A stretch of DNA of 33,124 nucleotides. Origin: Massilia sp. UBA2604. Lineage in GTDB: Bacteria > Pseudomonadota > Gammaproteobacteria > Burkholderiales > Burkholderiaceae_D. Below the pieces are notes generated by a model that was not told the DNA's origin, did not search any database, and saw nothing but the letters and a program-made list of their open reading frames with translations. The stretch covers positions 1 to 33,124 of the forward strand of contig DDKG01000169.1 in NCBI GenBank assembly GCA_002339265.1, in the 5' to 3' direction. Position numbers and translations under genes: made by a program. Below, piece after piece: positions 8,543 to 12,003 of the stretch. Within the stretch, counting starts at the first letter, position 1; every line of letters starts with the position of its first letter.

Positions 8543-8983
8543 TTATTTGGCGGCGCCGGTCTGGGCCGCGAAGGTCAGCTTGTCGTAGCCGGCCACGCGC
8601 GCCGCTTCCAGCACATTGATCACCATCTGGTGCATCGCGAACTGGTCGGCGTTGACGATGATCACCGGGCTGGCCACGACTTGCCCGTCAGGCGTGCGCG
8701 CGGCGTTCTTCATGTCCTGGGCCAGGCCGGCCACGCTGTGGAAGGCTACCTGCGTGTTATTGACCGTATAGTTGCCCTTGGCATCGACCGTCACGTTGAT
8801 CTCGAACGGCTTCTCCGCCTGCTTCTCGGCCTCGGCGGTCGGCAAGGTGATCTGCAGCTCGGTGAACTTGCTGTAGGTGGTCGTGACCATCACAAAGATC
8901 AGGATCACCAGCAGCACGTCGATGAACGGGATCAGGTTGATCTCCGGTTCCTCGCGCTTGCGGCCGCGGCGAAAGTCCATCAT
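8543..8983 (-). CDS. exbD: ExbD/TolR family biopolymer transport protein
   Basis: A 146-aa stator subunit of a proton-driven ExbB-ExbD complex. It has a short cytoplasmic basic N terminus, one transmembrane helix (FIDVLLVILIFVMVTTTY, residues 20-37) carrying the essential proton-path Asp22, and a periplasmic domain of about 100 residues. ATG 8983 overlaps the exbB stop (ATGA); the second Met (8980) is also possible. Its position ahead of lpxK is conserved in many betaproteobacteria. The assignment to ExbD rather than TolR rests on the absence of tolA, tolB and pal nearby. Confidence 0.93.
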   Translation of the reverse strand: MMDFRRGRKREEPEINLIPFIDVLLVILIFVMVTTTYSKFTELQITLPTAEAEKQAEKPFEINVTVDAKGNYTVNNTQVAFHSVAGLAQDMKNAARTPDGQVVASPVIIVNADQFAMHQMVINVLEAARVAGYDKLTFAAQTGAAK

Positions 8984-9588
8984 TTGCGGGCACCGTGGAC
9001 GACGTCGACCAGCTTCACCGCCTGCAGTTCCATGTCGACCACATAGGTGTCGACCAGGTTGCGGAAGTGGCGGTAGAACACCAGGGCCGGCATGGCGATC
9101 GCGATGCCGAAGCCGGTGTTGTACAGCGCGACCGAGATGCCGTGCGCCAGCTGGGCCGGATTATTGCCGCCGGTCGGCGTCGCGGCGCCGAAAATCTCGA
9201 TCATGCCGACGATCGTGCCGAACAGGCCCATCAGCGGCGCCAGGGAGGCGATGGTGCCGAGCGTGGTGAGGAAACGTTCCAGGTTCTGGGCGACGCCACG
9301 GCCGGCTTCTTCGATCGACTCCTTCATCACGTCACGCGGGGCGTCGACGTTGCGCAGCGCCGCAGCCAGCACGGCGCCGAGGGGCGAGTTCTGTTCCAGC
9401 TTGTCCACCACGTCCGGGGTCACCTTGCCGCTGCGGTAGACGCGGATGACTTCATCGAGCAGGTTGCGGGGCAGGATCTTCTCGCGGCGCAGGGTGATCA
9501 GGCGTTCGACGATGAGGGCGACGGCAACGATCGACGCGACCAGCAGGAACCAGATGGGCCAACCTGCGGCTTGAAAAATGGCGAGCAA
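8980..9588 (-). CDS. exbB: MotA/TolQ/ExbB proton channel family protein
   Basis: A 202-aa inner-membrane proton-channel subunit that partners the adjacent ExbD. It has an N-terminal helix (AGWPIWFLLVASIVAVALIVERLITL), a central helix (LGTIASLAPLMGLFGTIVGMIEIF, with the family G-L-F-G-T-V/I-G-M motif) and a third (GISVALYNTGFGIAIAMPALVFYRHF). The start is TTG at 9588, supported by AGGAG seven bases upstream and by the N terminus expected for the family. It is the first gene of the envelope operon, and its promoter must lie at or beyond 9589, next to the first unit of the repeat array. Confidence 0.95.
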   Translation of the reverse strand: MLAIFQAAGWPIWFLLVASIVAVALIVERLITLRREKILPRNLLDEVIRVYRSGKVTPDVVDKLEQNSPLGAVLAAALRNVDAPRDVMKESIEEAGRGVAQNLERFLTTLGTIASLAPLMGLFGTIVGMIEIFGAATPTGGNNPAQLAHGISVALYNTGFGIAIAMPALVFYRHFRNLVDTYVVDMELQAVKLVDVVHGARK

Positions 9589-10641
9589 GAGATACTCCTG
9601 AGAGGAAAAAGATCAATTCGGCAATGTAGCAAGTTGGCAGCGAAGCGGCAAGTAGAGTTCTTCACAACTTCTGTGGATAAAATTGTGCGCAATGGCCGCG
9701 AGGTGGAACAAGTACCTTGATTTGTAAGGGCTTTCTGCGCCTGCGCAAGAAAATGGCAGTCTCATGACTTGGCTCAATCGAGCTCGGGCTTAGTAAGTTG
9801 CTCACACTCATGCTGTAGTTGCGAACAAATTCTGTGGACAAAATTGTGCGCAAGGGTAGCCGGACTCGACTAAGTGACTGATTCCATGGACTTAAATTGT
9901 CGAGCCTAAATTGCGGGCAGCAAAACTCGGCTGTAGTTCGCGTGCGATTGCGCCGGGTTCCGCACACTTTTTGTGGACAAAAGTGTGAGCAATGAGCACT
10001 TTATGACAGTAAGCCTTTGATTTACCTCAATAAAACATCACTGCCCAAAATATCAGCACACGGCACTTTTTGCCAACAAAAGGCGCCTTGAAGGCCGCTT
10101 CTGCCCCGCTTGTTTGGCTTATAAGGCAGCTGTGCATACATTATTCGCCATGTGCACAATTTTTGTGGATAAGAATGTGAGGAAGGTCGAACTTTACTTC
10201 TTAAGTTCTTGATTTCATTGATTTTAGATGAGTCTGCCTCAAAAAAGGGCAGCGGCGGATGCGACGTTTTCGGCTCGGCACAAGGCAGTTTGGCTGTGCG
10301 AGCGGCCGACCGGTGACGCAAAAGGTTTGCACAGATTCTGTGGACAACTTTGTGATCAAGCTCCCTGCTAGGGACTTAAGTCATTGATTCGTAACATTTC
10401 TACGTATCCTGCCCAATCGGTACGCACCCCTATCCAAACCGGATGAGTTCCCCACAGTTTTTGTGGATAAACCGCTCTTAAACGACATTACCCTATTCGT
10501 AACCCGTTGATTATCAAGGATTTTCAATAGATTGCATTGAAAAGTAGCAACATTGCCGTCGATCCCGACATCCGGCCCTGATACCGCTTGCGGCTTGCCG
10601 ATAGTGGATAATGCTCGCTTTCGCCATTTCGCCAGCCCACC
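9589..10641. other. 1-kb gene-free interval between divergent exbB and xseA
   Basis: No reading frame here looks coding. Open frames on the minus strand only translate the repeated motif (recurring peptide pieces such as YPQKL). The base composition is clearly more AT-rich than the flanking genes. The content is the six-unit repeat array at 9663-10512; the last 130 bp before xseA contain no obvious strong promoter. Confidence 0.8.
9663..10512 (+). repeat. Six-copy array of a 60-bp unit containing DnaA-box-like 9-mers
   Basis: The units are 9663-9722, 9824-9883, 9963-10022, 10155-10214, 10330-10389 and 10453-10512, all in the same orientation, with spacers of 101, 79, 132, 115 and 63 bp. Each unit has a left arm of consensus CACAANTTY, then TGTGGAYAA (reverse complement TTRTCCACA, the DnaA-box consensus), then usually a right arm like AANTTGTG. 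It ends in TTGATT (CTGATT in unit 2), which begins exactly 45 bp after the first base of the 9-mer in all six copies. TAA stands five bases before the hexamer's TTGATT start in five copies. Outside these anchors the sequence has diverged. The regularity is seen directly; a DnaA role is inference. Confidence 0.93.
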
Positions 10642-12003
10642 ATGCAAGCACCGAACGACGCCGATCCGGCCTTCACCGCCCCCGCCGTCCTGAGCGTTAC
10701 CGCCCTGAACCAGCAGGTGGCGCGCCTGCTGGAGCGCTCGTTCCCGCTGGTGTGGATCGGCGGCGAGATCTCCAACTTCACGCGCGCCGCCTCCGGCCAC
10801 TGGTACTTCACGCTGAAGGACGATGCGGCCCAGGTGCGCGCCGTGATGTTCCGCAGCCGCGCGCAGATGGCCGGCTTTACCCCGCGCGAAGGCGACAAGG
10901 TCGAGGTGCGCGCGCTGGTAACCCTGTACGGCGCGCGCGGCGACTACCAGATCAACGTCGAGGCGATCCGCCGCGCCGGCGTGGGCCAGCTCTACGAGGC
11001 CTTCCTGCGTCTGAAAGAAAAGCTGGCCGCGCAGGGCTTGTTCGACGCCGACCGCAAGCGTCCGCTGCCGCTGTTCGCGCGCAGCATCGGCATTGTCACC
11101 AGCCCGCAGGCCGCCGCACTGCGCGACGTGCTGACGGCCCTGCGCCGGCGCGCGCCGCACGTACGGATCGTGCTCTACCCTGCCCCGGTCCAGGGCCAGT
11201 TCGCGGCCGACAAGATCGCTGAAGCGATCATGACCGCTTCGCGCCGCGCCGAGGTCGACGTGCTGCTGGTCTGCCGCGGCGGCGGCTCGATCGAGGATTT
11301 ATGGAGCTTCAACGAGGAATGCGTGGCGCGCGCGATCGACGCCTGCGCGATTCCCGTGATCTCGGGCGTCGGCCACGAAACCGACGTCACCATCGCCGAC
11401 TTCGCCGCCGACGTGCGCGCCGCCACCCCGACGGCGGCCGCCGAACTGGCCGCCACGCCGCGCGCCGACTGGCTGGCCTCGCTCGAAGGCGACGCCATGG
11501 ACCTGAAGCGCGCCATGGAGCGCCGCCTGCACGACGCCGGCCAGGGCCTCGACAACCTGAGTCGCCGCTTGTTAAGCCCGTCGGCCCAGATCGGCCACCA
11601 GCGCCTGAAGCTGCTGTCGCTGGCGACGGCCATGACCCACGCGGTGAAACTGCCAGTGAATCGCCACGGCCTGGCGCTGGCCCAGCTGCAGCAGCGCTGG
11701 TCGCGCCACCGTCCCGACATGCGCGCCCTGCGCGCCCGCCTGGCGTCGGACAGCCGCCACCTGAACGCAAGCCTGTGCAGCCAAGTGAAGGCGCGGCGCG
11801 AAGCCCTGAACGCCCTCGCCGCCCAGCTCGAGCTGCTCAACCCGCAGCGGACGCTGGAGCGCGGCTATGCCATCGTCCGTGACGGCAAGGGCCAGATCGT
11901 GCGCGATCCAGCCCAGATCCACGCGCGCGACACGCTGACGGTGCGATTGGCCAACGGAAGCGCCGAGGTCGGCGTGGCCCAGGTGCAGAGCGTCCTGGAG
12001 TGA
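10642..12003 (+). CDS. xseA: Exodeoxyribonuclease VII large subunit
   Basis: The catalytic subunit of the ssDNA-specific exonuclease VII, which acts with XseB in DNA repair. The 453-aa protein starts with an OB-fold ([30 protein letters not shown] onward, residues about 16-115). The ExoVII large-subunit domain follows, with [51 protein letters not shown] and the [10 protein letters not shown] motif. The C terminus contains helical coiled-coil segments and ends with the conserved L-x-R-G-Y-A-I-V-R region. ATG 10642 gives a normal N terminus. No xseB is in the window. The gene is immediately downstream of the repeat array. Confidence 0.97.

What the first reader, a model, noticed from the sequence alone, without database searches (positions are those of the whole stretch)
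9663..10512. Six-unit 60-bp repeat array with DnaA-box-like 9-mers and an invariant 45-bp phase to TTGATT
In a 1-kb gene-free gap between exbB and xseA, TGTGGAYAA starts at 9672, 9833, 9972, 10164, 10339 and 10462. In every case YTGATT begins exactly 45 bp later (9717, 9878, 10017, 10209, 10384, 10507), although the sequence between has largely diverged and the spacers vary from 63 to 132 bp. Fixed spacing without sequence conservation argues for a constrained architecture, such as a protein bound at two sites or a folded RNA/DNA unit. All 9-mers match TTRTCCACA in one orientation. No dnaA, dnaN, rep or parB lies nearby, so this is not an ordinary chromosomal or plasmid origin. A DnaA-titration or reactivation locus (datA/DARS-like), a replication-linked control of exbB/xseA, or a family of repeated elements are the candidate roles.
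Basis: partly seen in the sequence, partly recalled or inferred. Interest (0 to 1): 0.85.

Follow-up and report, generated by a model that had tools for sequence, protein, structure and literature searches.

The report
Tandem DnaA-recharging sites in Massilia
Between exbB and xseA this bacterial chromosome (likely a Massilia) carries six copies of a roughly 100-base module laid out like E. coli's DnaA-reactivating site DARS2, with DnaA-box sequences followed by predicted IHF and Fis sites (the last copy lacks one box), so the array likely recharges the replication initiator DnaA with ATP.

Summary
In detail: six exact TGTGGAYAA-N36-YTGATT hits at the stated coordinates, 0.01 expected by chance. 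Each unit of about 100 bp has box I (+), 5-bp gap, box II (-), 3-bp gap, box III (-): the box order, orientation and spacing of the E. coli DARS1 and DARS2 cores. Core, IHF, Fis is the module order of DARS2. A matrix from same-genus units, run over 200 kb of E. coli K-12, ranks the DARS2 core first and the DARS1 core second, above the oriC and datA regions. All units lie between exbB and xseA in 56 of 56 named loci that hold both genes. The array sits at 0.52-0.62 of the oriC-ter arm in 12 of 13 relatives. The unit model matches in 32 of 40 genera of the family, near full length in 30. Best reading: a multiplied DARS2-type DnaA-reactivation locus in a group where my searches found none reported. 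DnaA, IHF and Fis binding, and ADP release, are predicted, not tested. New variant of a known kind.

The parts
8983..9588 (-). left flank: MotA/TolQ/ExbB family gene (exbB)
   Evidence: Pfam PF01618 E 1.6e-29
9658..9692 (+). unit 1 DARS-type core: box I 9658-9666 (+), box II 9672-9680 (-), box III 9684-9692 (-)
   Evidence: consensus match 7/8, 8/8, 6/8
9710..9722 (+). unit 1 predicted IHF site (7/9; reads CAA-N5-TTGATT, one base longer than the consensus)
9743..9757 (.). unit 1 Fis-like 15-mer
   Evidence: G-N13-C, 4/6 consensus positions
9819..9853 (+). unit 2 core: boxes start 9819, 9833, 9845
   Evidence: 5/8, 7/8, 6/8
9871..9883 (+). unit 2 predicted IHF site (8/9)
9904..9918 (.). unit 2 Fis-like 15-mer
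   Evidence: 5/6
9958..9992 (+). unit 3 core: boxes start 9958, 9972, 9984
   Evidence: 6/8, 7/8, 6/8
10010..10022 (+). unit 3 predicted IHF site (9/9)
10043..10057 (.). unit 3 Fis-like 15-mer
   Evidence: 5/6
10150..10184 (+). unit 4 core: boxes start 10150, 10164, 10176
   Evidence: 6/8, 8/8, 6/8
10202..10214 (+). unit 4 predicted IHF site (9/9)
10236..10250 (.). unit 4 Fis-like 15-mer
   Evidence: 4/6
10325..10359 (+). unit 5 core: boxes start 10325, 10339, 10351
   Evidence: 7/8, 7/8, 6/8
10377..10389 (+). unit 5 predicted IHF site (9/9)
10411..10425 (.). unit 5 Fis-like 15-mer
   Evidence: 6/6
10448..10470 (+). unit 6 core, boxes I and II only; the box III place (10474-10482) matches 4/8 and is counted as absent
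   Evidence: box I 6/8, box II 8/8
10500..10512 (+). unit 6 predicted IHF site (9/9)
10534..10548 (.). unit 6 Fis-like 15-mer (weak)
   Evidence: 3/6
10642..12003 (+). right flank: xseA, exonuclease VII large subunit
   Evidence: Pfam PF02601 E 1e-105

Best explanation
The gap between exbB and xseA holds a tandem array of six DARS2-type units (three DnaA-box sequences in five of them, two in the sixth, the first box facing the others, then a predicted IHF site and a predicted Fis site) that likely exchange ADP for ATP on DnaA and so would help time chromosome replication. Shown by sequence: the box geometry, the IHF consensus 38 bp and the Fis-like 15-mer 71/72 bp after the start of box II, their conservation, the exbB-xseA location, and the mid-arm position in relatives. 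Inferred: ADP-DnaA would pair head to head on boxes I and II, IHF would bend the DNA between core and Fis site, ADP would leave, and DnaA would reload with ATP; several units would multiply the output.
For: (1) E. coli DARS2 and DARS1 cores, read from NC_000913.3, have box starts at 0/14/26 with box I opposite to II and III; the window units have the same layout. A review gives equal spacing and opposite box I as the common feature of DARS1 and DARS2 (PMC5742627, passages). (2) A matrix from 48 same-genus cores over 200 kb of E. coli ranks the DARS2 core first (25.1 bits) and the DARS1 core second (11.5); next is another DARS2 site (5.8), oriC region best 0.2, datA region best -9.8. The full-unit model also finds the DARS2 core, weakly (E 0.0064). 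(3) IHF consensus TAAnnnnTTGATW and Fis consensus GnnYAnnnnnTRnnC are as printed in PMC4245941 (passages). IHF match: 9/9 in 4 of 6 units, 8/9 in one, 7/9 in one. In 48 aligned units the Fis-like G and C, 14 apart, are invariant. (4) In 29 class-wide core loci found with the core model alone, 12 of 16 exact Fis-consensus hits over offsets 22-280 fall at +70 to +73, the offset seen here. (5) A Fis homologue (37-42% identity) is in 12 of 12 family genomes tested. (6) Sites are 83-96% identical to five relatives, spacers 52-79%. (7) Mid-arm position 0.52-0.62 in 12 of 13 genomes; units oppose the fork in 13 of 13, as does E. coli DARS2. (8) Unit-model matches: 32 of 40 genera of the family, 4 of 24 other families of the order, 3 of 120 across the phylum, one of them the nearest genome itself.
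Against: No binding or activity data. The Infernal core model reported neither E. coli DARS core; its best E. coli hit is another box pair in DARS2 with a 10-base insert; the full-unit model reports no DARS1 hit at E 0.01. In the spacing control box III carries little weight: best sums 18.9 at the true spacing against 18.4 and 18.2 with box III moved by -2 or +2. Core-to-IHF distance is 38 bp here and 79 bp in E. coli. Neighbours differ from E. coli DARS1 (uvrB) and DARS2 (mutH). The Fis match in the window is partial (3 to 6 of 6 positions, exact in one unit). IHF at +38 is in only 1 of the 29 class-wide loci. One genome (G062) has the array at 0.29 of the arm, and in G315 it lies only about 0.77 Mb from dnaA (contig length not known). 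37 of 145 TGTGGAYAA in 31 loci lack YTGATT at +20 to +74. Sequence cannot tell activation from titration.
Confidence: 0.76

Rival explanations
1. A DnaA titration or datA-like inactivation locus: the array soaks up DnaA, or with IHF promotes ATP hydrolysis, and delays initiation.
For: Many DnaA-box sequences plus IHF consensus sites; datA also combines boxes and one IHF site (PMC5742627, passages). A section heading of PMC12371093 says DARS1, DARS2 and datA account for a large fraction of titration in E. coli (outline; that section not read).
Against: Box geometry fits DARS cores and not datA (25.1 and 11.5 bits against -9.8 at best in the datA region); a Fis-like site at a fixed place fits DARS2; the mid-arm position is unlike datA, which lies near oriC (recalled; one search shows its place at 4.39 Mb).
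Confidence: 0.14
2. A transcription control region for exbB or xseA, in which DnaA and IHF couple these genes to the cell cycle.
For: The array fills a divergent promoter gap; all units lie between the two genes in 56 of 56 named loci holding both.
Against: Unit number runs from 1 to 8 by exact pattern with the same two genes, and in other genera matches also lie elsewhere (8 of 30 fetched loci had neither gene within about 3 kb). Not tested by expression data.
Confidence: 0.06
3. A selfish or structural repeat family with no regulatory role, or a cryptic origin.
For: Tandem copies that diverge between units.
Against: In 34 of 37 same-genus genomes all exact hits form one cluster; conserved columns are binding-site-like while spacers drift; dnaA is 0.9-2.2 Mb away in 13 relatives.
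Confidence: 0.04

Closest known systems
E. coli DARS2 (DnaA-reactivating sequence 2)
   Same: Core of three DnaA boxes with identical order, orientation and spacing; IHF site then Fis site on the same side; intergenic; away from both oriC and ter; units oppose the fork.
   Different: Here 6 tandem compact units of about 100 bp against one 455-bp site; IHF site starts 38 bp after box II against 79 bp; Fis-like site at +71/72; flanked by exbB and xseA, not rppH and mutH; betaproteobacterial host.
E. coli DARS1
   Same: Same three-box core geometry; second-best E. coli site for the matrix.
   Different: No IHF consensus within one mismatch in the 700 bases scanned; one copy; beside uvrB; points with the fork.
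E. coli datA
   Same: DnaA boxes plus an IHF site in a noncoding locus (PMC5742627, passages).
   Different: Does not match the core matrix; near oriC (recalled).

Membership tests
DARS | three DnaA boxes, box I opposite to II and III, same spacing as DARS1 and DARS2 | tested here: met
   met in 5 of 6 window units, unit 6 lacks box III; boxes I and III are degenerate (5 to 7 of 8 consensus positions)
DARS2 | IHF site TAAnnnnTTGATW beside the core | tested here: met
   9/9 in 4, 8/9 in 1, 7/9 in 1 of 6 units; binding untested
DARS2 | Fis site beyond the IHF site | tested here: met
   G-N13-C with AT-rich centre at +71 in 74 and at +72 in 22 of 100 units; exact consensus in few (12 hits in 100 units, 11 of them at +71); binding untested
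DARS2 | core-to-IHF distance of E. coli | tested here: not met
   38 bp here, 79 bp in E. coli; this distance is not part of the feature shared by DARS1 and DARS2
DARS2 | mid-arm chromosomal position | tested here: met
   12 of 13 relatives at 0.52-0.62, one at 0.29; the window's own genome is not held
DARS2 | same genomic neighbours as E. coli (rppH, mutH) | tested here: not met
   flanks are exbB and xseA; this is locus orthology, not a defining trait of DARS
DARS | stimulates ADP release from DnaA | not testable with these tools
   needs biochemistry
datA | datA box arrangement | tested here: not met
   core matrix scores -9.8 at best in the 50 kb around datA; a search in the reverse direction was not made
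oriC | adjacent dnaA | tested here: not met
   dnaA lies 0.9-2.2 Mb away in 13 relatives

The most novel reading that the evidence does not exclude
DnaA reactivation by a compact DARS module (three-box core with a Fis site one fixed 71-bp step away) is an ancestral device of the whole gamma/beta lineage, and the Massilia-Janthinobacterium group turned it into a countable rheostat by placing an IHF gate at +38 and multiplying the unit up to eight-fold or more between exbB and xseA, setting ATP-DnaA output by unit number.
Probability: 0.4. Interest if true: 0.87.

Novelty: new variant of a known kind. Interest (0 to 1): 0.74.

Why it matters
The DARS2 core has been described as conserved specifically among gamma-proteobacteria related to E. 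coli (PMC4245941, passages), with DARS-like sequences also noted in Vibrio (PMC6090056, passage). This would place an IHF- and Fis-gated DnaA recharging site in Burkholderiales, suggest what its minimal unit is (about 100 bp, three modules at fixed phase), and offer natural strains with 1 to 8 or more units in which the dose of DnaA reactivation can be related to replication timing. It makes two open questions directly testable: how far the DnaA nucleotide cycle is conserved, and why the positions of IHF and Fis matter.

Tried and rejected
Rfam scan of the window gave no match, so no known RNA family reached its cut-off. An oriC or plasmid origin was rejected: dnaA is far away in relatives. 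A simple genome-wide repeat was rejected for the genus. The E. coli genome could not be searched whole (L045 was not held), so a 200-kb comparison was used; it includes both DARS loci by choice, so it is a ranking test and not a genome-wide one. Class-wide core loci (135 of 274 genomes) are not at the E. coli DARS neighbours: within about 3 kb, 0 of the 29 loci examined show mutH, rppH, ptsP, ygdQ, bioC, bioD, mnmG, mioC, exbB, exbD or xseA, and one shows a weak uvrB match; those 29 are the loci handed back, from the best-scoring matches. For the models, 2 of 50 non-redundant units (the single units L007 and L019, outside the array) were left out by choice. For one search, two genomes of low completeness (G068, G081) were left out of G062-G103. 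Of the 32 genomes with a match there, G083 and G095 have partial matches only. Exact patterns undercount: G062 gives 1 unit by the strict pattern and 8 by the full model. Searches over more than 40 genomes used stricter filters. Position fractions were computed for 13 of the 30 genomes with dnaA located, those whose contig length I had. The binding-site columns compared with spacers were chosen after seeing the profile.

Full report
What is there. The pattern TGTGGAYAA-N36-YTGATT occurs six times in the window, all on + and all between exbB and xseA, with 0.01 expected in shuffles. The nearest held genome (G001, 25% of sampled 31-letter words) and named relatives such as Massilia sp. HP4 (L115, xseA 95% identical) make the source likely a Massilia; its own assembly is not held.

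The unit. One hundred units from 31 loci (the window and 30 same-genus loci) give a clear profile. Counting from the first base of TGTGGAYAA (box II): box I TTCYGCACA at -14, on the other strand; box II at 0; box III TGTGCGCAA at +12; an IHF-type site YAARYCNTTGATT at +38 to +50 with AT-rich DNA after it; and a 15-mer of the kind GCnCAAAAAnnnGGC at +71 or +72. In an alignment of 48 units the first G and last C of that 15-mer, 14 bases apart, are invariant, as are the TGATT and the ACA of box I. In the window the IHF match is 9/9 in four units, 8/9 in one and 7/9 in one; the Fis match is 3 to 6 of 6; unit 6 lacks box III. A model of the whole unit finds these six places in the window and no other (the six are among the sequences it was built from).

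The comparison that decides. E. coli DARS2 and DARS1, read from K-12, have cores with box starts 0/14/26 and box I reversed, the layout seen here. The review of the DnaA cycle gives this as the shared feature (PMC5742627, passages), and head-to-head pairing of DnaA on boxes I and II as the way ADP is released is in PMC8682772 (passages). The 2014 DARS2 paper prints the IHF and Fis consensus used here, shows that both sites are needed, that moving them by 5 bp harms activity, and states that the DARS2 core is conserved specifically among gamma-proteobacteria related to E. coli (PMC4245941, passages). A matrix from 48 same-genus cores, run over 200 kb of E. coli holding oriC, datA, DARS1 and DARS2, ranks the DARS2 core first (25.1 bits) and the DARS1 core second (11.5); the oriC region best is 0.2 and the datA region best -9.8. 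The full-unit model reports the DARS2 core weakly (E 0.0064) and not DARS1. Against this, Infernal with the core model reported neither core, and the spacing control shows that box III adds little.

Independent support for the Fis element. The core model alone was run on 274 genomes of the class; 135 had a match at E 0.001. In the 29 loci handed back, exact Fis-consensus 15-mers cluster at +70 to +73 (12 of 16 hits over offsets 22 to 280), the offset found in the Massilia units, while an IHF consensus at +38 is in 1 of 29. A Fis homologue is present in 12 of 12 family genomes tested; in one of them (G114) the matched stretch holds a stop codon, beside an open frame of 82 residues.

Distribution and place. 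By exact pattern: 37 of 37 same-genus genomes and 0 of 24 genomes of other families; 260 of 392 family genomes with a stricter pattern, reversed-pattern control 0 in the rows. By the full model: 32 of 40 genera of the family, 30 of them with a near full-length match, 4 of 24 other families of the order, 3 of 120 across the phylum, one being the nearest genome itself (stricter filters). Among 119 named loci (list cut at its limit), 56 hold both exbB and xseA and in all 56 every exact unit lies between them; 12 hold one of the two; 51 hold neither. Units per locus among the 56: one in 22, two in 8, three in 10, four in 7, five in 8, eight in 1. Of 30 loci, 22 have exbB or xseA within about 3 kb. 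In 13 genomes the array lies at 0.52-0.62 of the arm in 12 and 0.29 in one, and its units oppose the fork in all 13; E. coli DARS2 is at about 0.41 and also opposes it, DARS1 does not (a dif-like site was used for 6 of the 13, half the contig for the others; the E. coli dif place is recalled). Binding-site columns are 83-96% identical to five relatives where spacers are 52-79%.

Mechanism. By analogy with E. coli, ADP-DnaA would pair head to head on boxes I and II, IHF bending would bring the Fis-bound DNA to the core, ADP would leave and DnaA would reload with ATP. The geometry is shown; the binding and the exchange are inferred. Several units would raise output or buffer it. I put 0.76 on a DARS2-type role, 0.14 on titration or datA-like inactivation.

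Print. Searches of the held library (listings and starts of abstracts) for DARS and DnaA terms with Burkholderia, Betaproteobacteria, Burkholderiales, Oxalobacteraceae genera and others showed no paper on DARS in this group. Two papers holding both DARS and Burkholderia were checked by passages: in both, Burkholderia occurs only in the reference list (PMC6090056; PMC3937223). Subscription papers are mostly not held, so absence in print is not shown.

Noticed in passing
L060-L088 (class-wide loci): A DARS-type three-box core with an exact Fis consensus about 71 bp after box II occurs in a good part of the 29 loci examined from many families of the class, not beside the E. coli DARS genes.
   Followed up: partly
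L007, L019, L025: Three same-genus genomes carry a second, single unit elsewhere; in L007 and L025 it lies near a gene with a DUF6396 domain.
   Followed up: partly
L213-L216 (G108 near 107 and 349 kb, G088 near 5.09 Mb, G062 near 5.75 Mb): Further weaker matches in clusters lie roughly 90-390 kb from dnaA in three genera, a possible counterpart of datA.
   Followed up: no
window 10448-10560 and last units of L002, L003, L005, L006: The unit next to xseA often lacks box III and is followed by a shared stretch like CAATAGAnTGCATTGAAAA, perhaps part of the xseA promoter.
   Followed up: no
L147 6053 and 7850 (G037:C3): Two units with identical matched sequence 1.8 kb apart in Massilia rhizosphaerae suggest a recent duplication or insertion inside the array.
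   Followed up: no
G065, G076, G084: In some genera unit-model matches are dispersed over several contigs or places rather than in one tandem array.
   Followed up: no
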